A stretch of 64,000 nucleotides of DNA, from assembly GCA_963921795.1 (NCBI GenBank), contig OY997641.1, positions 57,626,950 to 57,690,949 of the forward strand, given 5' to 3'. Both the position numbers and the translations under genes were made by a program. The stretch comes from Nannobrachium achirus. Lineage: Eukaryota > Chordata > Actinopteri > Myctophiformes > Myctophidae. Every line of letters begins with the position of its first letter. The first letter of the stretch is position 1. Shown here in pieces: positions 376 through 49,464 of the stretch. The notes under the pieces are model-generated. The model was given only the letters and a program-made list of their open reading frames with translations. It made no database searches and was not told where the DNA came from.

Positions 376-404
376 ATAATTCAATTGCACGCATGCTGCG
401 TGCT

Positions 405-445
405 GTAAATAGCAGATCTACAAGCTCACAACGCAGCGCTGTGAC
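405..445. repeat. Half copy of the dispersed AGATCTACAAGCTC hairpin family
   Basis: Contains TAGCAGATCTACAAGCTCAC, the left arm of a hairpin found complete at 31620, 31823, 37975, 46790 and 63206. Here the right arm is missing. It lies about 55 bp outside the left target-site duplication of the giant foldback element. Confidence 0.65.
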
Positions 446-492
446 TTACTTGTGAACTTTTATTTCTGCTTACCGAGCACACATAAAGTAGC

Positions 493-500
493 CTATAACT
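493..500. repeat. Left 8-bp target-site duplication (CTATAACT)
   Basis: CTATAACT directly abuts the outer end of the left inverted repeat at 501. The same 8 bp directly abut the right end (26606-26613), and the bases on either side do not match, so the duplication is exactly 8 bp. Confidence 0.85.
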
Positions 501-711
501 ACTGCGGTCACGCCATCTACTCTTCAGGAAAAGCTGGTCGCGCTATCCTCACTTCAAAATATGGTGCGCTTCTACACGGCTGTTTACGGTTTGACAAGGG
601 GATGGTGCGTTCAAGGTGAGCTGGTACATTAGAATTTCTAGACTTTCGAGAAAAAGGGTGTATAAAATATGGAACTACATACTATTCAATCAACAGATGC
701 TTTAAATTAGA
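501..711 (+). repeat. Left 211-bp terminal inverted repeat
   Basis: Reverse-complementary to 26395-26605 over its full 211 bp with only a few differences, for example GAGCTG versus CGAGCTG context near 617/26490 and GAAAAAG versus GACCAAG near 650/26455. It is not tandemly repeated and ends at the C run at 712-726. Confidence 0.9.
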
Positions 712-726
712 CCCCCCCCCCCCCCC

Positions 727-1984
727 ACGTAGTGATGTCAGTAGCTCATATACTGAATGAATACGATGCATAGTAGTGATGTCTGTAGCTCATACTGAAT
801 GAATATGATGTATAGAATAGTGATGTCTGTAGCTCATACACTGAATGAATATGATGTATAGAGTAGTGATGTCTGTAGCTCATATACTGAATGAATATGA
901 TGTAGTGATGTCTGTAGCTCATATACTGAATGAATATGATGCATAGAGTAGTGATGTCTGTAGCTCATATACTGAATGAATATGATGCATAGAGTAGTGA
1001 TGTCTGTAGCTCATATACTGAATGAATATGATGCATAGAGTAGTGATGTCTGTAGCTCATATACTGAATGAATATGATGTCGTGATGTATGTAGCTCATA
1101 TACTGAATGAATATGATGCATAGAGTAGTGATGTCTGTAGCTCATATACTGAATGAATATGATGCATAGAGTAGTGATGTCTGTAGCTCATATACTGAAT
1201 GAATATGATGCATAGAGTAGTGATGTTTGTAGCTCATATACTGAATGAATATGATGCATAGAGTAGTGATGTCTGTAGCTCATATACTGAATGGATATGA
1301 TGGCATAGAGTAGTGATGTCTGTAGCTCATATACTGAGCTCATATACTGAATGAATATGATGTGTATAGTAGTGATTTCTGTAGCTCATATACTGAATGA
1401 ATATGATGTATAGAGTAGTGATGTCTGTAGCTCATACACTGAATGAATATGATGTATAGAGTAGTGATGTCTGTAGCTCATATACTGAATGAATATGATG
1501 TATAGTGATGTATGTAGCTCATATACTGAATGAATATGATGCATAGAGTAGTGATGTCTGTAGATCATATACTGAATGAATATGATGCTTAGAGTATTGA
1601 TGTCTGTAGCTCATATACTGAATGAATATGATGTATATAGTAGTGATGTCTGTAGCTCATATACTGAATGAATATGATGTATAGAGTAGTGATGTCTGTA
1701 GCTCATATACTGAATGAATATGATGTAGTGATGTCTGTAGCTCATATACTGAATGAATATGATGTATAGTGATGTCTGTAGCTCATATACTGAATGAATA
1801 TGATGTATAGAGTAGTGATGTCTGTAGCTCAAATACTGAATGAATATGATGTATAGAGTAGTGATGTCTGTAGCTCATATACTGAATGAATATGATGTAT
1901 AGTGATGTCTGTAGCTCATATACTGAATGAATATAATGTATAGAGTACTGATGTCTGTAGCTCATATACTGAATGAATATGATG
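727..1984 (-). repeat. 38-48 bp minisatellite, left arm
   Basis: Tandem units carrying GTCTGTAGCTCATATACTGA, mostly about 46 bp with shorter variants near 39 bp. The order of variants (a CATACTG unit, a CATACACTG unit, a short unit and so on) is the mirror of 25125-26381. Reading frames across it (for example minus strand 1386-1568) are products of the repeat, not genes. Confidence 0.95.
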
Positions 1985-4900
1985 ATGTTCCTAAGTACCT
2001 CTAAAAAATATTCCCAAACTTTTTTACTGTGCCAATAATTTATAATAAATTCTACAAATATTACCATAATCCATTCGCTATACTGCAAAAAGTATAAAAT
2101 CTGATAAAAATTAAGAAGATTTGTTACCATAAAACAACTATGTCACCTTATTCATGATGTACCTAAGTACCTCTAAAAATATTCCTGACCTGTTTTACTG
2201 TGCCAATAATTTATAATAAATTCTACAAATATTACCATAATCCATTCGCTATACTGCAAAAAGTATAAAATCTGATAAAAATTAAGAAGATTTGTTACCA
2301 TAAAACAACTATGTCACCTTGTTCATGATGTACCTAAGTACCTCTAAAAATATTCCTGACCTGTTTTACTGTGCCAATAATTTATAATAAATTCGACAAA
2401 TATTACCATAATCCATCCGCTATAGAGCAAAAAGTATAAAATCAGATAAAAATCAAAAAGATTTGTTACCATAAACCAACTCTGTCACTTTGTTCATGAT
2501 GTTCCTAAGTACCTCTAAAAAATATTCCCAACCTTTTTTACTGTGCCAATAATTTATAATAAATTCGACAAATATTACCATAATCCATCCGCTATAGAGC
2601 AAAAAGTATAAAATCAGATAAAAATCAAAAAGATTTGTTACCATAAAACAACTATGTCACCTTGTTCATGATGTTCCTAAGTACCTCTAAAAAATATTCC
2701 CAAAGTGTTTTACTGTGCCAATAATTTATAATAAATTCGACAAATATTACCATAAACCTTCGCTATACAGCTAAAAGTATAAAATCTGATAAAAATCAAA
2801 AAGATTTGTTACCATAAAACAACTATGTCACCTTGTTCATGATGTTCCTAAGTACCTCTAAAAAATATTCCCAACCTTTTTTACAGTGCCAATAATTTAT
2901 AATAAATTCGACAAATATTACCATAATCCATCCGCTATAGAGCAAAAAGTATAAAATCTGATAAAAATCAAAAAGATTTGTTACCATAAAACAACTATGT
3001 CACCTTGTTCATGATGTTCCTAAGTACCTCTAAAAAATATTCCCAACCTTTTTTACTGTGCCAATAATTTATAATAAATTCGACAAATATTACCATAATC
3101 CATCCGCTATAGAGCAAAAAGTATAAAATCAGATAAAAATCAAAAAGATTTGTTACCATAAAACAACTCTGTCACCTTGTTCATGATGTTCCTAAGTACC
3201 TCTAAAAAATATTCCCAAACTTTTTTACTGTGCCAATAATTTATAATAAATTCGACAAATATTACCATAATCCATCCGCTATAGAGCTAAAAGTATAAAA
3301 TCAGATAAAAATCAAAAAAAATTGTTACCATAAACCAACTCTGTCACCTTGTTCATGATGTTCCTAAGTACCTCTAAAAAATATTCCCAAACTTTTTTAC
3401 TGTGCCAATAATTTATAATAAATTCGACAAATATTACCATAATCCATCCGCTATAGAGCTAAAAGTATAAAATCAGATAAAAATCAAAAAGATTTGTTAC
3501 CATAAACCAACTCTGTCACCTTGTTCATGATGTTCCTGAGTACCTCTAAAAAATATTCCCAAACTTTTTTACTGTGCCAATAATTTATAAAAAATTCGAC
3601 AAATATTACCATAATCCATCCGCTATAGAGCAAAAAGTATAAAATCAGATAAAAATCAAAAAGATTTGTTACCATAAACCAACTCTGTCACCTTGTTCAT
3701 GATGTTCCTAAGTACCTCTAAAAAATATTCCCAAACTTTTTTACTGTGCCAATAATTTATAATAAATTCGACAAATATTACCATAATCCATCCGCTATAG
3801 AGCAAAAAGTATAAAATCAGATAAAAATCAAAAAGATTTGTTACCATAAACCAACTCTGTCACCTTGTTCATGATGTTCCTGAGTACCTCTAAAAAATAT
3901 TCCCAAACTTTTTTACTGTGCCAATAATTTATAATAAATTCGACAAATATTACCATAATCCATCCGCTATAGAGCAAAAAGTATAAAATCAGATAAAAAT
4001 CAAAAAGATTTGTTACCATAAATCAACTCTGTCACCTTGTTCATGATGTTCCTAAGTACCTCTAAAAATATTCCTGACCTGTTTTACTGTGCCAATAATT
4101 TATAATAAATTCGACAAATATTACCATAATCCATCCGCTATAGAGCAAAAAGTATAAAATCAGATAAAAATCAAAAAGATTTGTTACCATAAACCAACTC
4201 TGTCACCTTGTTCATGATGTTCCTAAGTACCTCTAAAAAATATTCCCAAACTTTTTTACTGTGCCAATAATTTATAATAAATTCGACAAATATTACCATA
4301 ATCCATCCGCTATAGAGCTAAAAGTATAAAATCAGATAAAAATCAAAAAGATTTGTTACCATAAACCAACTCTGTCACCTTGTTCATGATGTTCCTAAGT
4401 ACCTCTAAAAAATATTCCCAAACTTTTTTACTGTGCCAATAATTTATAATAATTTCGACAAATATTACCATAATCCATCCGCTATAGAGCTAAAAGTATA
4501 AAATCAGATAAAAATCAAAAAGATTTGTTACCATAAACCAACTCTGTCACCTTGTTCATGATGTTCCTGAGTACCTCTAAAAAATATTCCCAAACTTTTT
4601 TACTGTGCCAATAATTTATAATAAATTCGACAAATATTACCATAATCCATCCGCTATAGAGCAAAAAGTATAAAATCAGATAAAAATCAAAAAGATTTGT
4701 TACCATAAACCAACTCTGTCACCTTGTTCATGATGTTCCTGAGTACCTCTAAAAATATTCCCAAACTTTTTTACTGTGCCAATAATTTATAATAAATTCG
4801 ACAAATATTACCATAATCCATCCGCTATAGAGCAAAAAGTATAAAATCAGATAAAAATCAAAAAGATTTGTTACCATAAATCAACTCTGTCACCTTGTTC

Positions 4901-7900
4901 ATGATGTTCCTAAGTACCTCTAAAAATATTCCTGACCTGTTTTACTGTGCCAATAATTTATAATAAATTCGACAAATATTACCATAATCCATCCGCTATA
5001 GAGCAAAAAGTATAAAATCAGATAAAAATCAAAAAGATTTGTTACCATAAACCAACTCTGTCACCTTGTTCATGATGTTCCTAAGTACCTCTAAAAAATA
5101 TTCCCAAACTTTTTTACTGTGCCAATAATTTATAATAAATTCGACAAATATTACCATAATCCATCCGCTATAGAGCTAAAAGTATAAAATCAGATAAAAA
5201 TCAAAAAGATTTGTTACCATAAACCAACTCTGTCACCTTGTTCATGATGTTCCTGAGTACCTCTAAAAAATATTCCCAAACTTTTTTACTGTGCCAATAA
5301 TTTATAATAAATTCGACAAATATTACCATAATCCATCCGCTATAGAGCTAAAAGTATAAAATCAGATAAAAATCAAAAAGATTTGTTACCATAAACCAAC
5401 TCTGTCACCTTGTTCATGATGTTCCTGAGTACCTCTAAAAATATTCCCAACCTGTTTTACTGTGCCAATAATTTATAATAAATTCGACAAATATTACCAT
5501 AAACCTTCGCTATACAGCTAAAAGTATAAAATCTGATAAAAATTAAGATTTGTTACCATAAAACAACTATGTCACCTTGTTCATGATGTTCCTAAGTACC
5601 TCTAAAAAATATTCCCAACCTTTTTTACTGTGCCAATAATTTATAATAAATTCGACAAATATTACCATAATCCATCCGCTATAGAGCAAAAAGTATAAAA
5701 TCAGATAAAAATCAAAAAGATTTGTTACCATAAATCAACTCTGTCACCTTGTTCATGATGTTCCTAAGTACCTCTAAAAATATTCCTGACCTGTTTTACT
5801 GTGCCAATAATTTATAATAAATTCGACAAATATTACCATAATCCATCCGCTATAGAGCAAAAAGTATAAAATCAGATAAAAATCAAAAAGATTTGTTACC
5901 ATAAACCAACTCTGTCACCTTGTTCATGATGTTCCTAAGTACCTCTAAAAAATATTCCCAAACTTTTTTACTGTGCCAATAATTTATAATAAATTCGACA
6001 AATATTACCATAATCCATCCGCTATAGAGCTAAAAGTATAAAATCAGATAAAAATCAAAAAGATTTGTTACCATAAACCAACTCTGTCACCTTGTTCATG
6101 ATGTTCCTAAGTACCTCTAAAAAATATTCCCAAACTTTTTTACTGTGCCAATAATTTATAATAAATTCGACAAATATTACCATAATCCATCCGCTATAGA
6201 GCTAAAAGTATAAAATCAGATAAAAATCAAAAAGATTTGTTACCATAAACCAACTCTGTCACCTTGTTCATGATGTTCCTGAGTACCTCTAAAAAATATT
6301 CCCAAACTTTTTTACTGTGCCAATAATTTATAATAAATTCGACAAATATTACCATAATCCATCCGCTATAGAGCTAAAAGTATAAAATCAGATAAAAATC
6401 AAAAAGATTTGTTACCATAAACCAACTCTGTCACCTTGTTCATGATGTTCCTGAGTACCTCTAAAAATATTCCCAACCTGTTTTACTGTGCCAATAATTT
6501 ATAATAAATTCGACAAATATTACCATAAACCTTCGCTATACAGCTAAAAGTATAAAATCTGATAAAAATTAAGAAGATTTGTTACCATAAAACAACTATG
6601 TCACCTTGTTCATGATGTTCCTAAGTACCTCTAAAAAATATTCCCAACCTTTTTTACTGTGCCAATAATTTATAATAAATTCTACAAATATCACCATAAA
6701 CCTTCGCTATACAGCTAAAAGTATAAACTCTGATAAAAATTAAGAAGATTTGTTACCATAAAACAACTATGTCACCTTGTTCATGATGTTCCTAAGTACC
6801 TCGAAAAAATATTCCCAACCTTTTTTACTGTGCCAATAATTTATAATAAATTCTACAAATATCACCATAAACCTTCGCTATACAGCTAAAAGTATAAACT
6901 CTGATAAAAATTAAGAAGATTTGTTACCATAAAACAACTATGTCACCTTGTTCATGATGTTCCTAAGTACCTCGAAAAAATATTCCCAACCTTTTTTACT
7001 GTGCCAATAATTTATAATAAATTCGACAAATATCACCATAAACCTTCGCTATACAGCTAAAAGTATAAACTCTGATAAAAATTAAGAAGATTTGTTACCA
7101 TAAAACAACTAAGTCACCTTGTTCATGATGTTCCTAAGTACCTCTAAAAAATATTCCCAAACTGTTTTACTGTGCCAATAATTTATAATAAATTCGACAA
7201 ATATTACCATAAACCTTTGCTATACAGCAAAAACTATAAAAACTGATAGAAATTAAGAAGATTTGTTACCATAAAACAACTATGTCACCTTGTTCATGAT
7301 GTCTCTAAGTACCTCTAAAAAATATTCCCAAACTGTTTTACTGTGCCAATAATTTATAATAAATTCGACAAATATTACCATAAACCTTCGCTATACAGCT
7401 AAAAGTATAAACTCTGATAAAAATTAAGAAGATTTGTTACCATAAAACAACTATGTCACCTTGTTCATGATGTTCCTAAGTACCTCTAAAAAATATTCCC
7501 AAACTGTTTTACTGTGCCAATAATTTATAATAAATTCGACAAATATTACCATAAACCTTCGCTATACAGCTAAAAGTATAAAATCTGATAAAAATTAAGA
7601 AGATTTGTTACCATAAAACAACTATGTCACCTTGTTCATGATGTTCCTAAGTACCTCTAAAAATATTCCCAACCTTTTTTACTGTGCCAATAATTTATAA
7701 TAAATTCTACAAATATCACCATAAACCTTCGCTATACAGCTAAAAGTATAAAATCTGATAAAAATTAAGAAGATTTGTTACCATAAAACAACTATGTCAC
7801 CTTGTTCATGATGTTCCTAAGTATCTCTAAAAAATATTCCCAACCTTTTTTACTGTGCCAATAATTTATAATAAATTCTACAAATATCACCATAAACCTT

Positions 7901-10900
7901 CGCTATACAGCTAAAAGTATAAACTCTGATAAAAATTAAGAAGATTTGTTACCATAAAACAACTATGTCACCTTGTTCATGATGTTCCTAAGTACCTCTA
8001 AAAAATATTCCCAAACTGTTTTACTGTGCCAATAATTTATAATAAATTCGACAAATATTACCATAAACCTTTGCTATACAGCAAAAACTATAAAAACTGA
8101 TAAAAATTAAGAAGATTTGTTACCATAAAACAACTATGTCACCTTGTTCATGATGTCTCTAAGTACCTCTAAAAAATATTCCCAAACTGTTTTACTGTGT
8201 CAATAATTTATAATAAATTCGACAAATATTACCATAAACCTTTGCTATACAGCAAAAACTATAAAAACTGATAAAAATTAAGAAGATTTGTTACCATAAA
8301 ACAACTATGTCACCTTGTTCATGATGTTCCTAAGTACCTCTAAAAAATATTCCCAAACTGTTTTACTGTGCCAATAATTTATAATAAATTCTACAAATAT
8401 CACCATAAACCTTCGCTATACAGCTAAAAGTATAAACTCTGATAAAAATTAAGAAGATTTGTTACCATAAAACAACTATGTCACCTTGTTCATGATGTTC
8501 CTAAGTACCTCGAAAAAATATTCCCAACCTTTTTTACTGTGCCAATAATTTATAATAAATTCGACAAATATCACCATAAACCTTCGCTATACAGCTAAAA
8601 GTATAAACTCTGATAAAAATTAAGAAGATTTGTTACCATAAAACAACTATGTCACCTTGTTCATGATGTTCCTAAGTACCTCTAAAAAATATTCCCAAAC
8701 TGTTTTACTGTGCCAATAATTTATAATAAATTCGACAAATATTACCATAAACCTTTGCTATACAGCAAAAACTATAAAAACTGATAGAAATTAAGAAGAT
8801 TTGTTACCATAAAACAACTGTCACCTTGTTCATGATGTCTCTAAGTACCTCTAAAAAATATTCCCAAACTGTTTTACTGTGCCAATAATTTATAATAAAT
8901 TCGACAAATATTACCATAAACCTTTGCTATACAGCAAAAACTATAAAAACTGATAAAAATTAAGAAGATTTGTTACCATAAAACAACTATGTCACCTTGT
9001 TCATGATGTTCCTAAGTACCTCTAAAAAATATTCCCAAACTGTTTTACTGTGCCAATAATTTATAATAAATTCTACAAATATCACCATAAACCTTCGCTA
9101 TACAGCTAAAAGTATAAACTCTGATAAAAATTAAGAAGATTTGTTACCATAAAACAACTATGTCACCTTGTTCATGATGTTCCTAAGTACCTCGAAAAAA
9201 TATTCCCAACCTTTTTTACTGTGCCAATAATTTATAATAAATTCGACAAATATCACCATAAACCTTCGCTATACAGCTAAAAGTATAAACTCTGATAAAA
9301 ATTAAGAAGATTTGTTACCATAAAACAACTATGTCACCTTGTTCATGATGTTCCTAAGTACCTCTAAAAAATATTCCCAAACTGTTTTACTGTGCCAATA
9401 ATTTATAATAAATTCGACAAATATTACCATAAACCTTTGCTATACAGCAAAAACTATAAAAACTGATAGAAATTAAGAAGATTTGTTACCATAAAACAAC
9501 TATGTCACCTTGTTCATGATGTCTCTAAGTACCTCTAAAAAATATTCCCAAACTGTTTTACTGTGCCAATAATTTATAATAAATTCGACAAATATTACCA
9601 TAAACCTTCGCTATACAGCTAAAAGTATAAACTCTGATAAAAATTAAGAAGATTTGTTACCATAAAACAACTATGTCACCTTGTTCATGATGTTCCTAAG
9701 TACCTCTAAAAAATATTCCCAAACTGTTTTACTGTGCCAATAATTTATAATAAATTCGACAAATATTACCATAAACCTTCGCTATACAGCTAAAAGTATA
9801 AAATCTGATAAAAATTAAGAAGATTTGTTACCATAAAACAACTATGTCACCTTGTTCATGATGTTCCTAAGTACCTCTAAAAATATTCCCAACCTTTTTT
9901 ACTGTGCCAATAATTTATAATAAATTCTACAAATATCACCATAAACCTTCGCTATACAGCTAAAAGTATAAAATCTGATAAAAATTAAGAAGATTTGTTA
10001 CCATAAAACAACTATGTCACCTTGTTCATGATGTTCCTAAGTATCTCTAAAAAATATTCCCAACCTTTTTTACTGTGCCAATAATTTATAATAAATTCTA
10101 CAAATATCACCATAAACCTTCGCTATACAGCTAAAAGTATAAACTCTGATAAAAATTAAGAAGATTTGTTACCATAAAACAACTATGTCACCTTGTTCAT
10201 GATGTTCCTAAGTACCTCTAAAAAATATTCCCAAACTGTTTTACTGTGCCAATAATTTATAATAAATTCGACAAATATTACCATAAACCTTTGCTATACA
10301 GCAAAAACTATAAAAACTGATAAAAATTAAGAAGATTTGTTACCATAAAACAACTATGTCACCTTGTTCATGATGTCTCTAAGTACCTCTAAAAAATATT
10401 CCCAAACTGTTTTACTGTGTCAATAATTTATAATAAATTCGACAAATATTACCATAAACCTTTGCTATACAGCAAAAACTATAAAAACTGATAAAAATTA
10501 AGAAGATTTGTTACCATAAAACAACTATGTCACCTTGTTCATGATGTTCCTAAGTACCTCTAAAAAATATTCCCAAACTGTTTTACTGTGCCAATAATTT
10601 ATAATAAATTCGACAAATATTACCATAAACCTTTGCTATACAGCAAAAACTATAAAAACTGATAAAAATTAAGAAGATTTGTTACCATAAAACAACTATG
10701 TCACCTTGTTCATGATGTTCCTAAGTACCTCGAAAAAATATTCCCAACCTTTTTTACTGTGCCAATAATTTATAATAAATTCTACAAATATCACCATAAA
10801 CCTTCGCTATACAGCTAAAAGTATAAACTCTGATAAAAATTAAGAAGATTTGTTACCATAAAACAACTATGTCACCTTGTTCATGATGTTCCTAAGTATC

Positions 10901-11449
10901 TCTAAAAAATATTCCCAACCTTTTTTACTGTGCCAATAATTTATAATAAATTCTACAAATATCACCATAAACCTTCGCTATACAGCTAAAAGTATAAACT
11001 CTGATAAAAATTAAGAAGATTTGTTACCATAAAACAACTATGTCACCTTGTTCATGATGTTCCTAAGTACCTCTAAAAAATATTCCCAACCTGTTTTACT
11101 GTGCCAATAATTTATAATAAATTCTACAAATATCACCATAAACCTTCGCTATACAGCTAAAAGTATAAACTCTGATAAAAATTAAGAAGATTTGTTACCA
11201 TAAAACAACTATGTCACCTTGTTCATGATGTTCCTAAGTATCTCTAAAAAATATTCCCAACCTTTTTTACTGTGCCAATAATTTATAATAAATTCTACAA
11301 ATATCACCATAAACCTTCGCTATACAGCTAAAAGTATAAAATCAGATAAAAATCAAGAAGATTTGTTACCATAAAACAACTATATCCCCTTGTTCATGAT
11401 GTATCTAAGTACCTCTAAAAAATATTCCCGACCTGTTTTACTGTGCCAA
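1985..11449 (-). repeat. 171-172 bp satellite array, left arm
   Basis: About 9.5 kb of head-to-tail AT-rich monomers, roughly 55 by length over period. Each holds ATGATGTTCCTAAGTACCTC, an ACTGTGCCAATAATTTATAA block and TTGTTACCATAAA. Every monomer keeps a short dyad, AATTTATNATAAATT-like. A block at about 6841-8390 recurs at 9061-10610 (shift 2220 bp, 13 monomers) with the same private variants. Confidence 0.97.
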
Positions 11450-11462
11450 TACTATTTGTTTA
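11440..11462. other. Centre of the giant palindrome (satellite orientation switch)
   Basis: The left-arm monomer breaks off after CTGTGCCAAT, and right-arm sequence starts within a monomer at TTTATCTGATTTTATAC. About 10 bp (ACTATTTG region) separate them, so there is no unique loop and no transposase between the arms. Confidence 0.85.
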
Positions 11463-14400: not shown

Positions 14401-17400
14401 ATTATGGTAATATTTGTCGAATTTATTATAAATTATTGGCACAGTAAAAAAGTTTGGGAATATTTTTTAGAGGTACTCAGGAACATCATGAACAAGGTGA
14501 CAGAGTTGGTTTATGGTAACAAATCTTTTTGATTTTTATCTGATTTTATACTTTTAGCTCTATAGCGGATGGATTATGGTAATATTTGTCGAATTTATTA
14601 TAAATTATTGGCACAGTAAAAAAGTTTGGGAATATTTTTTAGAGGTACTTAGGAACATCATGAACAAGGTGACAGAGTTGGTTTATGGTAACAAATCTTT
14701 TTGATTTTTATCTGATTTTATACTTTTAGCTCTATAGCGGATGGATTATGGTAATATTTGTCGAATTTATTATAAATTATTGGCACAGTAAAAAAGTTTG
14801 GGAATATATTTTAGAGGTACTTAGGAACATCATGAACAAGGTGACAGAGTTGGTTTATGGTAACAAATCTTTTTGATTTTTATCTGATTTTATACTTTTT
14901 GCTCTATAGCGGATGGATTATGGTAATATTTGTCAAATTTATTATAAATTATTGGCACAGTAAAACAGGTCAGGAATATTTTTAGAGGTACTTAGGAACA
15001 TCATGAACAAGGTGACAGAGTTGATTTATGGTAACAAATCTTTTTGATTTTTATCTGATTTTATACTTTTTGCTCTATAGCGGATGGATTATGGTAATAT
15101 TTGTCGAATTTATTATAAATTATTGGCACAGTAAAAAAGTTTGGGAATATTTTTTAGAGGTACTCAGGAACATCATGAACAAGGTGACAGAGTTGGTTTA
15201 TGGTAACAAATCTTTTTGATTTTTATCTGATTTTATACTTTTTGCTCTATAGCGGATGGATTATGGTAATATTTGTCGAATTTATTATAAATTATTGGCA
15301 CAGTAAAAAAGTTTGGGAATATTTTTTAGAGGTACTTAGGAACATCATGAACAAGGTGACATAGTTGTTTTATGGTAACAAATCTTCTTAATTTTTATCA
15401 GATTTTATACTTTTAGCTGTATAGCGAAGGTTTATGGTAATATTTGTAGAATTTATTATAAATTATTGGCACAGTAAAACAGTTTGGGAATATTTTTTGG
15501 AGGTACTTAGGAACCTCATGAACAAGGTGACATAGTTGTTTTATGGTAACAAATCTTCTTAATTTTTATCTGATTTTATACTTTTTGCTCTATAGCGGAT
15601 GGATTATGGTAATATTTGTCGAATTTATTATAAATTATTGGCACAGTAAAAAAGGTTGGGAATATTTTTTAGAGGTACTTAGGAACATCATGAACAAGGT
15701 GACAGAGTTGGTTTATGGTAACAAATCTTTTTGATTTTTATCTGATTTTATACTTTTAGCTCTATAGCGGATGGATTATGGTAATATTTGTCGAATTTAT
15801 TATAAATTATTGGCACAGTAAAACAGGTCAGGAATATTTTTAGAGGTACTTAGGAACATCATGAAAGAGGTGACAGAGTTGATTTATGGTAACAAATCTT
15901 TTTGATTTTTATCTGATTTTATACTTTTTGCTCTATAGCGGATGGATTATGGTAATATTTGTCGAATTTATTATAAATTATTGGCACAGTAAAAAAGTTT
16001 GGGAATATTTTTTAGAGGTACTCAGGAACATCATGAACAAGGTGACAGAGTTGGTTTATGGTAACAAATCTTTTTGATTTTTATCTGATTTTATACTTTT
16101 TGCTCTATAGCGGATGGATTATGGTAATATTTGTCGAATTTATTATAAATTATTGGCACAGTAAAAAAGTTTGGGAATATTTTTTAGAGGTACTTAAGAA
16201 CATCATGAACAAGGTGACATAGTTGTTTTATGGTAACAAATCTTCTTAATTTTTATCAGATTTTATACTTTTAGCTGTATAGCGAAGGTTTATGGTAATA
16301 TTTGTAGAATTTATTATAAATTATTGGCACAGTAAAACAGTTTGGGAATATTTTTTGGAGGTACTTAGGAACCTCATGAACAAGGTGACATAGTTGTTTT
16401 ATGGTAACAAATCTTCTTAATTTTTATCTGATTTTATACTTTTTGCTCTATAGCGGATGGATTATGGTAATATTTGTCGAATTTATTATAAATTATTGGC
16501 ACAGTAAAAAAGGTTGGGAATATTTTTTAGAGGTACTTAGGAACATCATGAACAAGGTGACAGAGTTGGTTTATGGTAACAAATCTTTTTGATTTTTATC
16601 TGATTTTATACTTTTAGCTCTATAGCGGATGGATTATGGTAATATTTGTCGAATTTATTATAAATTATTGGCACAGTAAAAAAGTTTGGGAATATTTTTT
16701 AGAGGTACTCAGGAACATCATGAACAAGGTGACAGAGTTGGTTTATGGTAACAAATCTTTTTGATTTTTATCTGATTTTATACTTTTAGCTCTATAGCGG
16801 ATGGATTATGGTAATATTTGTCGAATTTATTATAAATTATTGGCACAGTAAAAAAGTTTGGGAATATTTTTAGAGGTACTTAGGAACATCATGAACAAGG
16901 TGACAGAGTTGGTTTATGGTAACAAATCTTTTTGATTTTTATCTGATTTTATACTTTTTGCTCTATAGCGGATGGATTATGGTAATATTTGTCGAATTTA
17001 TTATAAATTATTGGCACAGTAAAACAGGTCAGGAATATTTTTAGAGGTACTTAGGAACATCATGAACAAGGTGACAGAGTTGATTTATGGTAACAAATCT
17101 TTTTGATTTTTATCTGATTTTATACTTTTTGCTCTATAGCGGATGGATTATGGTAATATTTGTCGAATTTATTATAAATTATTGGCACAGTAAAAAAGTT
17201 TGGGAATATTTTTTAGAGGTACTCAGGAACATCATGAACAAGGTGACAGAGTTGGTTTATGGTAACAAATCTTTTTGATTTTTATCTGATTTTATACTTT
17301 TTGCTCTATAGCGGATGGATTATGGTAATATTTGTCGAATTTATTATAAATTATTGGCACAGTAAAAAAGTTTGGGAATATTTTTTAGAGGTACTTAGGA

Positions 17401-20400
17401 ACATCATGAACAAGGTGACATAGTTGTTTTATGGTAACAAATCTTCTTAATTTTTATCAGATTTTATACTTTTAGCTGTATAGCGAAGGTTTATGGTAAT
17501 ATTTGTAGAATTTATTATAAATTATTGGCACAGTAAAACAGTTTGGGAATATTTTTTGGAGGTACTAAGGAACCTCATGAACAAGGTGACAGTTGTTTTA
17601 TGGTAACAAATCTTCTTAATTTTTATCTGATTTTATACTTTTTGCTCTATAGCGGATGGATTATGGTAATATTTGTCGAATTTATTATAAATTATTGGCA
17701 CAGTAAAAAAGGTTGGGAATATTTTTTAGAGGTACTTAGGAACATCATGAACAAGGTGACAGAGTTGGTTTATGGTAACAAATCTTTTTGATTTTTATCT
17801 GATTTTATACTTTTAGCTCTATAGCGGATGGATTATGGTAATATTTGTCGAATTTATTATAAATTATTGGCACAGTAAAACAGGTCAGGAATATTTTTAG
17901 AGGTACTTAGGAACATCATGAACAAGGTGACAGAGTTGATTTATAGTAACAAATCTTTTTGATTTTTATCTGATTTTATACTTTTTGCTCTATAGCGGAT
18001 GGATTATGGTAATATTTGTCGAATTTATTATAAATTATTGGCACAGTAAAACAGGTCAGGAATATTTTTAGAGGTACTTAGGAACATCATGAACAAGGTG
18101 ACAGAGTTGATTTATGGTAACAAATCTTTTTGATTTTTATCTGATTTTATACTTTTTGCTCTATAGCGGATGGATTATGGTAATATTTGTCGAATTTATT
18201 ATAAATTATTGGCACAGTAAAAAAGTTTGGGAATATTTTTTAGAGGTACTCAGGAACATCATGAACAAGGTGACAGAGTTGGTTTATGGTAACAAATCTT
18301 TTTGATTTTTATCTGATTTTATACTTTTTGCTCTATAGCGGATGGATTATGGTAATATTTGTCGAATTTATTATAAATTATTGGCACAGTAAAAAAGTTT
18401 GGGAATATTTTTTAGAGGTACTTAGGAACATCATGAACAAGGTGACATAGTTGTTTTATGGTAACAAATCTTCTTAATTTTTATCAGATTTTATACTTTT
18501 AGCTGTATAGCGAAGGTTTATGGTAATATTTGTAGAATTTATTATAAATTATTGGCACAGTAAAACAGTTTGGGAATATTTTTTGGAGGTACTTAGGAAC
18601 CTCATGAACAAGGTGACATAGTTGTTTTATGGTAACAAATCTTCTTAATTTTTATCTGATTTTATACTTTTTGCTCTATAGCGGATGGATTATGGTAATA
18701 TTTGTCGAATTTATTATAAATTATTGGCACAGTAAAAAAGGTTGGGAATATTTTTTAGAGGTACTTAGGAACATCATGAACAAGGTGACAGAGTTGGTTT
18801 ATGGTAACAAATCTTTTTGATTTTTATCTGATTTTATACTTTTTGCTCTATAGCGGATGGATTATGGTAATATTTGTCGAATTTATTATAAATTATTGGC
18901 ACAGTAAAAAAGTTTGGGAATATTTTTTAGAGGTACTCAGGAACATCATGAACAAGGTGACAGAGTTGGTTTATGGTAACAAATCTTTTTGATTTTTATC
19001 TGATTTTATACTTTTTGCTCTATAGCGGATGGATTATGGTAATATTTGTCGAATTTATTATAAATTATTGGCACAGTAAAAAAGTTTGGGAATATTTTTT
19101 AGAGGTACTTAGGAACATCATGAACAAGGTGACATAGTTGTTTTATGGTAACAAATCTTCTTAATTTTTATCAGATTTTATACTTTTAGCTGTATAGCGA
19201 AGGTTTATGGTAATATTTGTAGAATTTATTATAAATTATTGGCACAGTAAAACAGTTTGGGAATATTTTTTGGAGGTACTTAGGAACCTCATGAACAAGG
19301 TGACATAGTTGTTTTATGGTAACAAATCTTCTTAATTTTTATCTGATTTGATACTTTTTGCTCTATAGCGGATGGATTATGGTAATATTTGTCGAATTTA
19401 TTATAAATTATTGGCACAGTAAAAAAGGTTGGGAATATTTTTTAGAGGTACTTAGGAACATCATGAACAAGGTGACAGAGTTGGTTTATGGTAACAAATC
19501 TTTTTGATTTTTATCTGATTTTATACTTTTAGCTCTATAGCGGATGGATTATGGTAATATTTGTCGAATTTATTATAAATTATTGGCACAGTAAAAAAGT
19601 TTGGGAATATTTTTTAGAGGTACTCAGGAACATCATGAACAAGGTGACAGAGTTGGTTTATGGTAACAAATCTTTTTGATTTTTATCTGATTTTATACTT
19701 TTAGCTCTATAGCGGATGGATTATGGTAATATTTGTCGAATTTATTATAAATTATTGGCACAGTAAAAAAGTTTGGGAATATTTTTAGAGGTACTTAGGA
19801 ACATCATGAACAAGGTGACAGAGTTGTTTTATGGTAACAAATCTTTTTGATTTTTATCTGATTTTATACTTTTTGCTCTATAGCGGATGGATTATGGTAA
19901 TATTTGTCGAATTTATTATAAATTATTGGCACAGTAAAACAGGTCAGGAATATTTTTAGAGGTACTTAGGAACATCATGAACAAGGTGACAGAGTTGATT
20001 TATGGTAACAAATCTTTTTGATTTTTATCTGATTTTATACTTTTTGCTCTATAGCGGATGGATTATGGTAATATTTGTCGAATTTATTATAAATTATTGG
20101 CACAGTAAAAAAGTTTGGGAATATTTTTTAGAGGTACTCAGGAACATCATGAACAAGGTGACAGAGTTGGTTTATGGTAACAAATCTTTTTGATTTTTAT
20201 CTGATTTTATACTTTTTGCTCTATAGCGGATGGATTATGGTAATATTTGTCGAATTTATTATAAATTATTGGCACAGTAAAAAAGTTTGGGAATATTTTT
20301 TAGAGGTACTTAGGAACATCATGAACAAGGTGACATAGTTGTTTTATGGTAACAAATCTTCTTAATTTTTATCAGATTTTATACTTTTAGCTGTATAGCG

Positions 20401-23400
20401 AAGGTTTATGGTAATATTTGTAGAATTTATTATAAATTATTGGCACAGTAAAACAGTTTGGGAATATTTTTTGGAGGTACTTAGGAACCTCATGAACAAG
20501 GTGACATAGTTGTTTTATGGTAACAAATCTTCTTAATTTTTATCTGATTTTATACTTTTTGCTCTATAGCGGATGGATTATGGTAATATTTGTCGAATTT
20601 ATTATAAATTATTGGCACAGTAAAAAAGGTTGGGAATATTTTTTAGAGGTACTTAGGAACATCATGAACAAGGTGACAGAGTTGGTTTATGGTAACAAAT
20701 CTTTTTGATTTTTATCTGATTTTATACTTTTAGCTCTATAGCGGATGGATTATGGTAATATTTGTCGAATTTATTATAAATTATTGGCACAGTAAAAAAG
20801 TTTGGGAATATTTTTTAGAGGTACTCAGGAACATCATGAACAAGGTGACAGAGTTGGTTTATGGTAACAAATCTTTTTGATTTTTATCTGATTTTATACT
20901 TTTAGCTCTATAGCGGATGGATTATGGTAATATTTGTCGAATTTATTATAAATTATTGGCACAGTAAAAAAGTTTGGGAATATTTTTAGAGGTACTTAGG
21001 AACATCATGAACAAGGTGACAGAGTTGTTTTATGGTAACAAATCTTTTTGATTTTTATCAGATTTTATACTTTTTGCTCTATAGCGGATGGATTATGGTA
21101 ATATTTGTCGAATTTATTATAAATTATTGGCACAGTAAAAAAGGTTGGGAATATTTTTTAGAGGTACTTAGGAACATCATGAACAAGGTGACATAGTTGT
21201 TTTATGGTAACAAATCTTTTTGATTTTTATCAGATTTTATACTTTTAGCTGTATAGCGAAGGTTTATGGTAATATTTGTCGAATTTATTATAAATTATTG
21301 GCACAGTAAAACACTTTGGGAATATTTTTTAGAGGTACTTAGGAACATCATGAACAAGGTGACATAGTTGTTTTATGGTAACAAATCTTTTTGATTTTTA
21401 TCTGATTTTATACTTTTTGCTCTATAGCGGATGGATTATGGTAATATTTGTCGAATTTATTATAAATTATTGGCACAGTAAAAAAGGTTGGGAATATTTT
21501 TTAGAGGTACTTAGGAACATCATGAACAAAGTGACAGAGTTGGTTTATGGTAACAAATCTTTTTGATTTTTATCTGATTTTATACTTTTTGCTCTATAGC
21601 GGATGGATTATGGTAATATTTGTCGAATTTATTATAAATTATTGGCACAGTAAAACAGGTCAGGAATATTTTTAGAGGTACTTAGGTACATCATGAACAA
21701 GGTGACATAGTTGGTTTATGGTAACAAATCTTTTTGATTTTTATCTGATTTTATACTTTTAGCTCTATAGCGGATGGATTATGGTAATATTTGTCGAATT
21801 TATTATAAATTATTGGCACAGTAAAAAAGTTTGGGAATATTTTTTAGAGGTACTCAGGAACATCATGAACAAGGTGACAGAGTTGGTTTATGGTAACAAA
21901 TCTTTTTGATTTTTATCTGATTTTATACTTTTTGCTCTATAGCGGATGGATTATGGTAATATTTGTCGAATTTATTATAAATTATTGGCACAGTAAAAAA
22001 GTTTGGGAATATTTTTTAGAGGTACTCAGGAACATCATGAACAAGGTGACAGAGTTGGTTTATGGTAACAAATCTTTTTGATTTTTATCTGATTTTATAC
22101 TTTTTGCTCTATAGCGGATGGATTATGGTAATATTTGTCGAATTTATTATAAATTATTGGCACAGTAAAAAAGTTTGGGAATATTTTTTAGAGGTACTTA
22201 GGAACATCATGAACAAGGTGACATAGTTGTTTTATGGTAACAAATCTTCTTAATTTTTATCAGATTTTATACTTTTAGCTGTATAGCGAAGGTTTATGGT
22301 AATATTTGTAGAATTTATTATAAATTATTGGCACAGTAAAACAGTTTGGGAATATTTTTTGGAGGTACTTAGGAACCTCATGAACAAGGTGACATAGTTG
22401 TTTTATGGTAACAAATCTTCTTAATTTTTATCTGATTTGATACTTTTTGCTCTATAGCGGATGGATTATGGTAATATTTGTCGAATTTATTATAAATTAT
22501 TGGCACAGTAAAAAAGGTTGGGAATATTTTTTAGAGGTACTTAGGAACATCATGAACAAGGTGACAGAGTTGGTTTATGGTAACAAATCTTTTTGATTTT
22601 TATCTGATTTTATACTTTTAGCTCTATAGCGGATGGATTATGGTAATATTTGTCGAATTTATTATAAATTATTGGCACAGTAAAAAAGTTTGGGAATATT
22701 TTTTAGAGGTACTCAGGAACATCATGAACAAGGTGACAGAGTTGGTTTATGGTAACAAATCTTTTTGATTTTTATCTGATTTTATACTTTTAGCTCTATA
22801 GCGGATGGATTATGGTAATATTTGTCGAATTTATTATAAATTATTGGCACAGTAAAAAAGTTTGGGAATATTTTTAGAGGTACTTAGGAACATCATGAAC
22901 AAGGTGACAGAGTTGTTTTATGGTAACAAATCTTTTTGATTTTTATCTGATTTTATACTTTTTGCTCTATAGCGGATGGATTATGGTAATATTTGTCGAA
23001 TTTATTATAAATTATTGGCACAGTAAAACAGGTCAGGAATATTTTTAGAGGTACTTAGGAACATCATGAACAAGGTGACAGAGTTGATTTATGGTAACAA
23101 ATCTTTTTGATTTTTATCTGATTTTATACTTTTTGCTCTATAGCGGATGGATTATGGTAATATTTGTCGAATTTATTATAAATTATTGGCACAGTAAAAA
23201 AGTTTGGGAATATTTTTTAGAGGTACTCAGGAACATCATGAACAAGGTGACAGAGTTGGTTTATGGTAACAAATCTTTTTGATTTTTATCTGATTTTATA
23301 CTTTTTGCTCTATAGCGGATGGATTATGGTAATATTTGTCGAATTTATTATAAATTATTGGCACAGTAAAAAAGTTTGGGAATATTTTTTAGAGGTACTT

Positions 23401-25124
23401 AGGAACATCATGAACAAGGTGACATAGTTGTTTTATGGTAACAAATCTTCTTAATTTTTATCAGATTTTATACTTTTAGCTGTATAGCGAAGGTTTATGG
23501 TAATATTTGTAGAATTTATTATAAATTATTGGCACAGTAAAACAGTTTGGGAATATTTTTTGGAGGTACTTAGGAACCTCATGAACAAGGTGACATAGTT
23601 GTTTTATGGTAACAAATCTTCTTAATTTTTATCTGATTTTATACTTTTTGCTCTATAGCGGATGGATTATGGTAATATTTGTCGAATTTATTATAAATTA
23701 TTGGCACAGTAAAAAAGGTTGGGAATATTTTTTAGAGGTACTTAGGAACATCATGAACAAGGTGACAGAGTTGGTTTATGGTAACAAATCTTTTTGATTT
23801 TTATCTGATTTTATACTTTTAGCTCTATAGCGGATGGATTATGGTAATATTTGTCGAATTTATTATAAATTATTGGCACAGTAAAAAAGTTTGGGAATAT
23901 TTTTTAGAGGTACTCAGGAACATCATGAACAAGGTGACAGAGTTGGTTTATGGTAACAAATCTTTTTGATTTTTATCTGATTTTATACTTTTAGCTCTAT
24001 AGCGGATGGATTATGGTAATATTTGTCGAATTTATTATAAATTATTGGCACAGTAAAAAAGTTTGGGAATATTTTTAGAGGTACTTAGGAACATCATGAA
24101 CAAGGTGACAGAGTTGTTTTATGGTAACAAATCTTTTTGATTTTTATCAGATTTTATACTTTTTGCTCTATAGCGGATGGATTATGGTAATATTTGTCGA
24201 ATTTATTATAAATTATTGGCACAGTAAAAAAGGTTGGGAATATTTTTTAGAGGTACTTAGGAACATCATGAACAAGGTGACATAGTTGTTTTATGGTAAC
24301 AAATCTTTTTGATTTTTATCAGATTTTATACTTTTAGCTGTATAGCGAAGGTTTATGGTAATATTTGTCGAATTTATTATAAATTATTGGCACAGTAAAA
24401 CACTTTGGGAATATTTTTTAGAGGTACTTAGGAACATCATGAACAAGGTGACATAGTTGTTTTATGGTAACAAATCTTTTTGATTTTTATCTGATTTTAT
24501 ACTTTTTGCTCTATAGCGGATGGATTATGGTAATATTTGTCGAATTTATTATAAATTATTGGCACAGTAAAAAAGGTTGGGAATATTTTTTAGAGGTACT
24601 TAGGAACATCATGAACAAAGTGACAGAGTTGGTTTATGGTAACAAATCTTTTTGATTTTTATCTGATTTTATACTTTTTGCTCTATAGCGGATGGATTAT
24701 GGTAATATTTGTCGAATTTATTATAAATTATTGGCACAGTAAAACAGGTCAGGAATATTTTTAGAGGTACTTAGGTACATCATGAACAAGGTGACATAGT
24801 TGTTTTATGGTAACAAATCTTCTTAATTTTTATCAGATTTTATACTTTTTGCAGTATAGCGAATGGATTATGGTAATATTTGTAGAATTTATTATAAATT
24901 ATTGGCACAGTAAAACAGGTCAGGAATATTTTTAGAGGTACTTAGGTACATCATGAATAAGGTGACATAGTTGTTTTATGGTAACAAATCTTCTTAATTT
25001 TTATCAGATTTTATACTTTTTGCAGTATAGCGAATGGATTATGGTAATATTTGTAGAATTTATTATAAATTATTGGCACAGTAAAAAAGTTTGGGAATAT
25101 TTTTTAGAGGTACTTAGGAACATC
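11450..25124 (+). repeat. 171-172 bp satellite array, right arm
   Basis: About 13.7 kb of the same monomer in the opposite orientation, roughly 80 units by length over period. The monomers at about 11450-13080 are the most divergent (GGGGATATAGTTG variant). From about 15 kb outward the monomers are homogenised into higher-order blocks with shifts of 858, 1888 and 3089 bp (5, 11 and 18 monomers). Repeated 63-codon open frames arise because each monomer has one stop in that frame; they are not treated as genes. Confidence 0.97.
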
Positions 25125-26381
25125 ATCATATTCATTCAGTATATGAGCTACAGACATCAGTACTCTATACATTATATTCATTCAGTATATGAGCTACAGA
25201 CATCACTATACATCATATTCATTCAGTATATGAGCTACAGACATCACTACTCTATACATCATATTCATTCAGTATTTGAGCTACAGACATCACTACTCTA
25301 TACATCATATTCATTCAGTATATGAGCTACAGACATCACTATACATCATATTCATTCAGTATATGAGCTACAGACATCACTACATCATATTCATTCAGTA
25401 TATGAGCTACAGACATCACTACTCTATACATCATATTCATTCAGTATATGAGCTACAGACATCACTACTATATACATCATATTCATTCAGTATATGAGCT
25501 ACAGACATCAATACTCTAAGCATCATATTCATTCAGTATATGATCTACAGACATCACTACTCTATGCATCATATTCATTCAGTATATGAGCTACATACAT
25601 CACTATACATCATATTCATTCAGTATATGAGCTACAGACATCACTACTCTATACATCATATTCATTCAGTGTATGAGCTACAGACATCACTACTCTATAC
25701 ATCATATTCATTCAGTATATGAGCTACAGAAATCACTACTATATACATCATATTCATTCAGTATATGAGCTCAGTATATGAGCTACAGACATCACTACTC
25801 TATGCCATCATATCCATTCAGTATATGAGCTACAGACATCACTACTCTATGCATCATATTCATTCAGTATATGAGCTACAAACATCACTACTCTATGCAT
25901 CATATTCATTCAGTATATGAGCTACAGACATCACTACTCTATGCATCATATTCATTCAGTATATGAGCTACAGACATCACTACTCAATGCATCATATTCA
26001 TTCAGTATATGAGCTACATACATCACAACATCATATTCATTCAGTATATGAGCTACAGACATCACTACTCTATGCATCATATTCATTCAGTATATGAGCT
26101 ACAGACATCACTACTCTATGCATCATATTCATTCAGTATATGAGCTACAGACATCACTACTCTATGCATCATATTCATTCAGTATATGAGCTACAGACAT
26201 CACTACATCATATTCATTCAGTATATGAGCTACAGACATCACTACTCTATACATCATATTCATTCAGTGTATGAGCTACAGACATCACTATTCTATACAT
26301 CATATTCATTCAGTATGAGCTACAGACATCACTACTATGCATCGTATTCATTCAGTATATGAGCTACTGACATCACTACGT
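25125..26381 (+). repeat. 38-48 bp minisatellite, right arm
   Basis: Inverted counterpart of 727-1984, with units ending TATGAGCTACAGACATCACT. Unit order and most variant bases mirror the left arm, with scattered single-base differences (for example CACAACATC at about 26025 versus the left counterpart at about 1080). Confidence 0.95.
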
Positions 26382-26394
26382 GGGGGGGGGGGGG

Positions 26395-26605
26395 TCTAAT
26401 TTAAAGCATCTGTTGATTGAATAGTATGTAGTTCCATATTTTATACACCCTTGGTCTCGAAAGTCTAGAAATTCTAATGTACCAGCTCGCCTTGAACGCA
26501 CCATCCCCTTGTCAAACCGTAAACAGCCGTGTAGAAGCGCACCATATTTTGAAGTGAGGATAGCGCGACCAGCTTTTCCTGAAGAGTAGATGGCGTGACC
26601 GCAGT
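26395..26605 (-). repeat. Right 211-bp terminal inverted repeat
   Basis: Mirror copy of 501-711, ending ...GGCGTGACCGCAGT at 26605 directly before the right target-site duplication. The adjoining G run (26382-26394) mirrors the left C run (712-726) and differs slightly in length. Confidence 0.9.
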
Positions 26606-26613
26606 CTATAACT
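26606..26613. repeat. Right 8-bp target-site duplication (CTATAACT)
   Basis: Exact copy of 493-500, immediately outside the right terminal inverted repeat. Confidence 0.85.
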
Positions 26614-29806: not shown

Positions 29807-29890
29807 TTGACAGAGCATCAGCAACAATACTGGTTTAAATTATACTTTCACCACCTTGCTCTGTAAGACAGTCTTATTGAACACGAGACC

Positions 29891-31619: not shown

Positions 31620-31693
31620 AAAAATAGCAGATATACAAGCTCACAGCGCGGCACCGAGTGCCGCGCTGCGAGCTTGTAGATCTGTTATTTTTA
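31620..31693. repeat. Dispersed hairpin repeat, copy 1
   Basis: AAAATAGCAGATATACAAGC pairs with GCTTGTAGATCTGTTATTTT across a GCGCGGCAC/GTGCCGCGC stem: about 35-bp arms and a 4-bp loop. Confidence 0.85.
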
Positions 31694-31822
31694 AGTCAAT
31701 TTTTAACTCAAATTTTGCTTCTGGGGGTCCCTGGAACGAAATATTTTGAGATCGGGGTCCGTGGCCAAATCATCTTGGGGGTCCTTGACATAGGTTTCTT
31801 GCACACATTTTCACGATTTTTC

Positions 31823-31897
31823 AAAAATAGCAGATCTACAAGCTCGCAGCGCGGCACTCGGTGCCGCGCTGTGAGCTTGTATATCTGCTATTTTTTA
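31823..31897. repeat. Dispersed hairpin repeat, copy 2
   Basis: Almost the exact reverse complement of copy 1 (31620-31693), with the same GC-rich core. The two form the inner arms of the hAT MITE. Confidence 0.85.
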
Positions 31898-46423: not shown

Positions 46424-46789
46424 TCTTGGAATTGCAATTGTGTAGTTCATTAAAGACAGTCCAAAGTTCCTACAGATAAAGTGAAACAACAACAAGCTTG
46501 TGGCAAATACAACACAGAAGTGCGCTCAGTAGATCAGGATCACACATATCAAATATGGGGGCTAAGAGTGTTAAAGGCTATTAAAGATTTTAGGTAAAGG
46601 AGTAAGAGTGCATGGTAAAGGCTAAAGATCAGGGCAAGGATTTGGGGGTCCGTTTCAAACTAGGTTGGTTTGATTGGGAAACAATTCACTCATTCATCCG
46701 CAGACAAATTTTGTATTCATAAATAAAATAAAATAAATCTAAAAATATCATCCATCAATATACATAAATAAAACAGTTTAAGAAGTAGT
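46424..46789. other. Intergenic, unassigned
   Basis: No gene recognised; its right part belongs to the flank of the hairpin repeat that follows. Confidence 0.4.
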
Positions 46790-49458: not shown

Positions 49459-49464
49459 TATCAG

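What the first reader, a model, noticed from the sequence alone, without database searches (positions are those of the whole stretch)
493..26613. A 26-kb foldback element made of satellite DNA with a perfect 8-bp target duplication
Seen directly: inverted 211-bp ends, mirrored minisatellite, mirrored satellite, and CTATAACT immediately outside both ends and nowhere inside the boundaries. Foldback elements with tandem repeats inside their inverted arms are known in Drosophila (FB, Galileo), but those are a few kb. A 26-kb element with satellite-scale arms and no spacer would be exceptional, and could be a route by which a transposon seeds satellite arrays. This is the best candidate here for an undescribed system.
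Basis: partly seen in the sequence, partly recalled or inferred. Interest (0 to 1): 0.93.

Follow-up and report, generated by a model that had tools for sequence, protein, structure and literature searches.

The report
Giant jumping palindromes of satellite DNA
In what appears to be a ray-finned fish, a long mirror-image stretch of satellite DNA turns out to belong to a family of large DNA transposons, typically about 18 kilobases long, found at many places in the genome, so a mobile element seems able to carry whole satellite arrays to new sites.

Summary
Observation confirmed: element 501-26605, perfect 8-bp duplication CTATAACT outside. Each arm has a 211-bp end (98.6% identical between arms), a 46-bp minisatellite mirrored unit for unit, and a 171-bp satellite (55 and 80 copies); 7 non-satellite bases lie at the centre. 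The host assembly shows mobility. Of 31 inverted end pairs examined, 26 have perfect 8-bp duplications, all different; 0 of 930 crossed flank pairs do. Pairs span 7.3-111.4 kb, median 17.8 kb. One copy has a paralogous empty site. Asymmetric arm combinations recur at independent sites (7 of 7 carriers of one end variant; 0 of 100,000 permutations), so units of roughly 10-14 kb or more probably moved intact. A GC-rich middle segment, absent from the window copy, was found within 20 of 31. No transposase was identified; a 38.8-kb copy with an 80-codon open stretch is a weak autonomous candidate. Best reading: a giant, mostly non-autonomous foldback DNA transposon family of the 8-bp-duplication class, built from satellite DNA. 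Foldback elements seeding satellites are known (Tetris, Drosophila virilis); scale, fish host and movement of array-scale units were not met in the papers searched.

The parts
493..500 (.). left target-site duplication CTATAACT
   Evidence: exact 8 bp, absent inside the element
501..711 (+). left terminal inverted repeat, 211 bp, begins ACTGCGGTCACGCC
   Evidence: 208/211 identical to the right end; 40 genome matches scored at 95-100% identity
712..728 (+). poly-C tract and short link between end and minisatellite
729..1984 (+). 46-bp minisatellite, left arm, 27.9 copies
   Evidence: mirrored unit for unit
1982..11451 (+). 171-bp satellite, left arm, 55.3 copies
11452..11458 (.). centre of the inverted structure: 7 non-satellite bases; no middle domain in this copy
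11459..25126 (-). 171-bp satellite, right arm, inverted, 79.7 copies
25124..26379 (-). 46-bp minisatellite, right arm, inverted, 27.9 copies
26380..26394 (-). poly-G tract and link, right arm
26395..26605 (-). right terminal inverted repeat, 211 bp
26606..26613 (.). right target-site duplication CTATAACT

Best explanation
The feature is one copy of a dispersed family of giant foldback DNA transposons. A copy has two inverted arms: a 211-bp end, a poly-C tract, a 46-bp minisatellite, in some arms a 0.4-0.75-kb GC-rich spacer, and a 171-bp satellite array. In many copies a GC-rich middle segment of about 0.9-1.5 kb lies between the arms; the window copy lacks it. Shown: inverted paired ends at many sites, 8-bp duplications that differ from site to site, one related empty site, and array order and asymmetric arm combinations shared between insertions. 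Inferred: a transposase supplied elsewhere binds the ACTGCGGTCACGCC ends, cuts out the whole unit (typically 10-30 kb) and inserts it with 8-bp staggered cuts. Also inferred: between moves the arrays lengthen and shorten by unequal exchange or slippage within an arm, and arms are partly exchanged between copies.
For: Family and pairing: 40 scored end matches at 95-100% identity (93 first-look candidates), 36 of 40 in inverted pairs at once, and the partners of the other 4 found; 82 sites for the 22-base end at up to 3 mismatches against 4 for the reversed control. TSDs: 31 inverted pairs examined; own flanks match 8/8 in 26 (26 different words), 7/8 in 1, 6/8 in 2, 5/8 in 1, 1/8 in 1; crossed flanks match 8/8 or 7/8 in 0 of 930, 6/8 in 6, 5/8 in 36. 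Empty site: of 18 joined flank pairs compared with the window and fetched loci, 1 (C14a) matches across the junction: a diverged copy of the repeat it sits in, near element C24, reads through with one target copy (97 of 134 columns identical, 22 gap columns). Large units: the window's left arm has 13 mismatches to an arm of C4b in the outer 2.9 kb of satellite and 53 to its own partner; 10 of 14 arms of other elements with the same layout have fewer mismatches to it than the partner has, one of them only with a 926-column gap. End variant c is paired with variant d in 7 of 7 carriers, 14.5-29.9 kb; 6 of these have different perfect TSDs; middle-segment orientation agrees in 7 of 7; 0 of 100,000 permutations. 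Five elements share one short plus one long arm with matching end variants. The centre junctions of the window and C4b, both without a middle segment, differ.
Against: No transposase was identified, so cut-and-paste is inferred from structure. Five of 31 pairs lack a perfect duplication; one (C20c) has unrelated flanks, and 5/8 or 6/8 also occur by chance. One of the pairs (C4c) has a left end that shares only about the outer 26 bases. Only 6 of 31 elements were read end to end; the others at the ends, by short samples or by search hits. In the end plus minisatellite the window's left arm is no closer to other elements than to its partner (4-8 against 6 mismatches), and the right arm's partner ties for second closest in the satellite; so conversion between arms or between copies may explain part of the sharing. 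Internal lengths rest on the assembly, not on reads.
Confidence: 0.88

Rival explanations
1. Small foldback elements (a few kb) transposed, and each array grew to tens of kb only after insertion, independently at each site.
For: Minisatellite and array copy numbers vary between arms and copies (minisatellite 19-40 units); the inner arrays of the window's arms expanded differently; lengths differ within groups that share end variants. An element of about 62 bp with the same terminal motif exists.
Against: Array order is shared between elements at different sites for about 4.5-6 kb per arm; asymmetric arm pairs recur at independent sites; no pair under 7.3 kb with family arms was among the 31 examined.
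Confidence: 0.15
2. The inverted structure is an assembly or long-read artefact (hairpin reads, misjoined satellite contigs).
For: Palindromic satellite is a known difficulty; no reads were available here.
Against: Different flanks on the two sides, 26 of 31 pairs with perfect and all different 8-bp duplications, unequal arms with arm-specific variants.
Confidence: 0.03
3. Satellite arrays spread by segmental duplication or reintegration of circles, not by a transposase.
For: A local tandem duplication that includes flank exists at C18, and C20c has no duplication.
Against: Exact ends, a fixed 8-bp duplication and a related empty site are what transposase integration gives.
Confidence: 0.04
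4. The family is moved by a KDZ/Zisupton-type transposase (8-bp duplications; a superfamily reported as recently active in fish) and the 38.8-kb copy C8 is its autonomous member.
For: TSD length 8; passages of PMC12730594 state that Zisupton makes 8-bp TSDs; the activity in fish rests on the title of a reference seen. Three of 3 samples inside C8 are not satellite, one has an 80-codon open stretch with several Cys and His.
Against: The 80 residues match no Pfam family above cut-off (best E 0.12, an unrelated family), no NCBIfam model and no protein in the large search, which only considers proteins of 44-140 residues for such a query. The KDZ search of the genome did not complete. C8 may simply carry nested insertions, and its TSD is only 6/8.
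Confidence: 0.2

Closest known systems
Tetris (Drosophila virilis foldback transposon; PMC4079207: abstract, section on characterization and first part of the discussion read)
   Same: Foldback structure; long inverted arms with an outer domain and satellite-size tandem repeats (about 220 bp); 8-10 bp duplications; middle domain without apparent coding capacity; array copy number differs between two allelic copies; the repeats also form satellite arrays of up to 66 copies.
   Different: Tetris inverted repeats reach 1,735 bp, and one copy has three or four repeats in its left arm. Here arms are several to more than 10 kb with tens of repeats inside elements that keep 8-bp duplications; the host is a fish; there is a second, minisatellite layer; the duplication is exactly 8 bp. 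No sequence comparison with Tetris was made.
Galileo, P superfamily foldback-like (PMC3688188: abstract and passages seen)
   Same: Long inverted repeats with internal tandem repeats; extra transposase-binding sites there may offset length.
   Different: Inverted repeats of more than 1 kb but not satellite-scale. Here the ends share no word of 9 or more bases with the minisatellite unit and one 9-base word with one satellite monomer, so repeated binding sites are not evident.
Tm1 Mutator/Foldback elements of root-knot nematodes (PMC3169594: abstract and passages seen)
   Same: Composite inverted repeats with several domains and variable tandem repeats; MITE-like and coding members.
   Different: Most commonly 9-bp duplications, and repeats of about 14 bp.
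MITEs carrying tandem repeats, Xmix in Xenopus (seen only as a reference and a table row in PMC9659126)
   Same: Vertebrate DNA transposon that carries tandem repeats.
   Different: Recalled as small elements, not giant foldbacks.
Teratorn (medaka, 180-kb piggyBac-herpesvirus fusion; start of abstract seen)
   Same: Giant DNA transposon in a fish.
   Different: Largely virus-derived, not satellite DNA.

Membership tests
Foldback (FB-like) DNA transposons, as a structural class | long inverted terminal arms composed of several domains including tandem repeats | tested here: met
   inverted arms in all 6 elements read end to end
Foldback (FB-like) DNA transposons, as a structural class | target-site duplication of fixed length at independent sites | tested here: met
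   26 of 31 pairs perfect 8 bp, all different; 0 of 930 crossed pairs
Foldback (FB-like) DNA transposons, as a structural class | variable middle domain | tested here: met
   GC-rich middle found within 20 of 31 pairs (40 of 42 candidates scored); other or no middle in C1, C20d, C4b and the window
Tetris family | sequence homology to Tetris ends or TIR-220 repeats | not tested
hAT superfamily | 8-bp duplication | tested here: met
hAT superfamily | CAG...CTG-type ends (recalled) | tested here: not met
   ends begin ACTGCGGTCACGCC
hAT superfamily | hAT transposase in an autonomous member | not tested
   no transposase found; no hAT search was run
KDZ (Zisupton) | 8-bp duplication | tested here: met
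   rule from passages of PMC12730594
KDZ (Zisupton) | KDZ transposase (PF18758) | not testable with these tools
   searches of the own genome for PF18758 all did not complete
Mutator/Phantom foldback elements | about 9-bp duplication (8-10 reported for Tm1 and Tetris) | tested here: inconclusive
   exactly 8 bp in 26 of 26 perfect cases, never 9
Mutator/Phantom foldback elements | MULE transposase | not tested
   no coding member read; no MULE search was run
P superfamily (Galileo) | THAP-domain transposase and 7-8 bp duplication (size recalled) | not tested
   no transposase found; no search was run

The most novel reading that the evidence does not exclude
A vertebrate DNA transposon family whose mobile unit is itself a kilobase-scale satellite palindrome. 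Arrays of tens of 171-bp monomers, both arms and the middle together (at least 10-30 kb, possibly up to the 111-kb copy that still has a perfect duplication), are cut and pasted to new sites. The transposon is then a vector that plants complete satellite arrays in one step, and the arrays go on evolving between jumps.
Probability: 0.75. Interest if true: 0.88.

Novelty: new variant of a known kind. Interest (0 to 1): 0.82.

Why it matters
How satellite arrays reach new chromosomal places is an old question. Proposed answers include circles, unequal exchange and short internal arrays of transposons. Here array-scale satellite DNA sits between the ends of a transposon with intact, site-specific target duplications at many loci, so array transfer by transposition becomes directly testable: polymorphic insertions, empty alleles, and array lengths of related copies. 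It also raises the question how a transposase brings together and moves ends 10-30 kb apart that are joined by a long palindrome, a structure expected to be unstable, and whether such elements cause rearrangements (one copy has unrelated flanks).

Tried and rejected
Assembly artefact: rejected for the ends on the TSD evidence. Single-copy curiosity: rejected. Transposase-binding sites repeated through the arrays, as in Galileo: no support in shared words. Middle segment as a known RNA gene: no Rfam match at gathering cut-off in 4 loci. Coding capacity: stop-to-stop stretches of at least 120 codons were sought in the 6 elements read in full: none in the window, C1 and C4b; up to 247 (C14b), 263 (C17) and 149 codons (C20d, one in each spacer), overlapping on both strands of GC-rich DNA in C14b and C17. 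Three of these (two of C14b, one of C20d) match no Pfam family; the C17 one was not searched. Copies in viral or prokaryotic collections: none for the 4 words tried. Species: not named. Named relatives of the retrotransposon protein are fish at about 48-56% identity, closer ones (up to 95%) come from unnamed sources; the Kelch ORF has named relatives in many vertebrates. Structure prediction and RNA models were not used. Autonomous member: C8 suspected, not shown.

Literature: searches. Apart from Tetris, no listed title or abstract start describes a foldback element with satellite-size repeats, and none describes one of this size or in a fish. Most papers were seen only in listings; subscription journals are largely not held.
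Full report
WHAT IS IN THE WINDOW. Reading and aligning the window confirms the observation. The element spans 501-26605 (26,105 bp). CTATAACT stands at 493-500 and 26606-26613; the bases beyond differ. The ends agree in 208 of 211 positions. The 46-bp minisatellites agree in 1246 of 1249 aligned bases although their units are irregular. The first 900 bp of satellite in each arm are identical. Further in, the arms differ in copy number (55 and 80 monomers), but their order still corresponds: the monomer alignment scores 69 against a maximum of 22.9 in 200 shuffles. Identical or near-identical blocks lie at the outer edge, at an inner boundary and next to the centre. The centre has 7 non-satellite bases. 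Two stop-to-stop stretches of 119 codons, mirror images of each other, are the only ones of at least 90 codons.

HOST. The assembly has 1.66 Gb in 564 contigs; the window is C4:57626950-57690949. A Kelch (KLHDC3-like) ORF, a non-LTR retrotransposon whose named relatives shown are fish, and a trypsin exon point to a ray-finned fish, with gene sequence near by. The species was not identified.

MOBILITY. The end with flank (221 bases) has 93 first-look candidates; the 40 scored are 95-100% identical, and 36 of them form 18 inverted pairs. The outer 22 bases at up to 3 mismatches occur 82 times, against 4 for the reversed control. Thirty-one inverted pairs, on 16 contigs, were examined at both ends, window included; pairs were put together from the coordinates of neighbouring opposite ends. 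Own flanks agree 8/8 in 26, 7/8 in 1 (C14b), 6/8 in 2 (C8, C4c), 5/8 in 1 (C16b) and 1/8 in 1 (C20c). The 26 perfect words are all different, and none extends beyond 8. Crossing the flanks of different elements gives 0 of 930 at 7/8 or 8/8, 6 at 6/8 and 36 at 5/8, so the imperfect cases are weak. For C14a the target lies in a palindromic repeat. A diverged copy of that repeat, in locus L007 beside element C24, continues through the site with one target copy (one base different) and no element (97 of 134 columns identical, 22 gap columns); the mirrored half of the repeat beside C14a itself does the same (63 of 71). It is the only one of 18 joined sites that matched across the junction in the loci at hand. 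Spans run from 7,301 to 111,412 bp, median 17,832, sum 709,879. Of the 20 remaining end sites, 10 were looked at: 9 are unpaired family ends and 1 is an element of about 62 bp with the same terminal motif and the 8-bp duplication GAAGCGTT.

ANATOMY OF THE FAMILY. Arm starts were read for 40 arms. All 40 have the end, a minisatellite (19-40 units) and 171-bp satellite. Short arms pass straight to satellite; long arms have a GC-rich spacer of 427-753 bp. Six elements were read end to end: window, C1, C14b, C17, C4b, C20d. C14b, C17 and the left part of C14a hold a GC-rich middle of about 1 kb (65-66% GC), 99.7% identical between C17 and C14a and inverted in C14b. A genome search for it (42 candidates, 40 scored) places it within 20 of the 31 pairs. 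C1 has a 0.5-kb centre that is partly decayed satellite, C20d another 0.2-kb centre, and C4b and the window almost none, with different junctions. Seventeen internal samples of 241 bp in six elements: 12 are satellite. In the 111-kb pair C9c the two left satellite samples are in one orientation and the two right ones inverted, with 2 non-satellite samples between, so nested or other DNA adds to its length. In C16b 3 of 3 samples are satellite in one orientation. C8 gave 0 of 3 satellite.

DID LARGE UNITS MOVE? Three results say yes. (1) The window's left arm agrees with arms of C4b and C9a (the two best matches) with 18 and 21 mismatches in the first 4 kb, against 38 with its own right arm. 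In the outer 2.9 kb of satellite, 10 of 14 arms of other elements with the same layout have fewer mismatches to it than its partner's 53. (2) End variant c occurs 7 times and is each time paired with d, in elements of 14.5-29.9 kb. Six of the 7 have different perfect duplications (C20c has none); the middle segment has the same orientation relative to the ends in 7 of 7; 0 of 100,000 permutations reach 7. A second asymmetric pair occurs in 8 elements (permutation p 0.003). (3) C14a, C17, C18, C20b and C4b each have one short arm and one long arm with the corresponding end variants. Against: lengths within these groups vary, so arrays also change after or between moves; in the end plus minisatellite the window's left arm is no closer to other elements than to its partner; the right arm's partner ties for second among 15 arms in the satellite. 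Conversion between copies cannot be excluded.

HOW IT WORKS. Shown: exact ends, exact 8-bp duplications, a related empty site, shared asymmetric units. From established knowledge: such duplications are the repaired staggered cut of a transposase. Inferred: the enzyme acts in trans, because no coding region was recognised in the six elements read in full. Open stretches of up to 263 codons exist in GC-rich parts of C14b, C17 and C20d; the three searched match no Pfam family. C8 gives the only other hint of a coding copy: an 80-codon open stretch with no recognisable relatives. The superfamily is open: 8 bp fits hAT, KDZ/Zisupton and P; the ends do not look like hAT ends as I recall them.

COMPARISON. 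Tetris of Drosophila virilis is the closest in plan, and its authors already argue that foldback elements can give rise to satellite DNA. Galileo and Tm1 share long repetitive inverted ends. A review of giant transposons has the word satellite nowhere in its text and foldback once, for the Drosophila Ising element (passages). The present family differs by size, by satellite-scale arms inside elements with intact duplications, and by host.

VERDICT. Observation confirmed; interpretation supported; new variant of a known kind, of high interest.

Noticed in passing
own assembly C20:24508678-24538616: Pair C20c carries the common asymmetric end variants but its flanks share no duplication (1/8), as expected after recombination between copies or a rearrangement with a breakpoint in the element. 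No mate flank (6/8 or better) was found among the 31 pairs.
   Followed up: partly
L070, own assembly C4:21865896: The left end of pair C4c keeps only about the outer 26 bases of the family end and then continues with other sequence: a rearranged end or a related element.
   Followed up: no
L056, own assembly C9:17764531: An element of about 62 bp with the same ACTGCGGTCACGCC end, an inverted partner end and 8-bp duplication GAAGCGTT; perhaps a minimal substrate of the same transposase.
   Followed up: partly
L052, own assembly C18:56021944 and 56023371: Two direct copies of the end 1.4 kb apart with the same flank before each: a local tandem duplication that includes flanking DNA.
   Followed up: no
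own assembly C10:7805317-7806847 and 7929192-7930722: Two copies of the middle segment with the same pattern 123.9 kb apart, suggesting a large local duplication.
   Followed up: no
own assembly C3:215750, C4:76488805, C6:256606, C8:69981213, C12:263750 and 265958, C14:65253534: Weak matches (72% over query 38-192) to one part of the middle segment lie within about 0.3 Mb of contig ends, possibly subtelomeric repeats related to its origin.
   Followed up: no
window 28712-29839, minus strand: Uninterrupted Kelch ORF of 375 codons; named vertebrate KLHDC3 proteins are about 43-52% identical, unnamed ones up to 62% over part. Perhaps an old retrocopy kept open.
   Followed up: partly
window 47419-52471: Non-LTR retrotransposon: a 679-codon frame without Pfam match, then endonuclease and reverse transcriptase frames; nearest proteins, up to 95% identical, come from unnamed sources.
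   Followed up: partly
window 404-493, 31622-31893, 46789-46847 and others: A short hairpin repeat (AAATAGCAGATCTACAAGCTCACA) recurs through the window, also just left of the element.
   Followed up: no
own assembly C8:2885000-2885240 (L093): 80-codon open stretch with several Cys and His and no relatives found, inside the 38.8-kb pair C8.
   Followed up: partly
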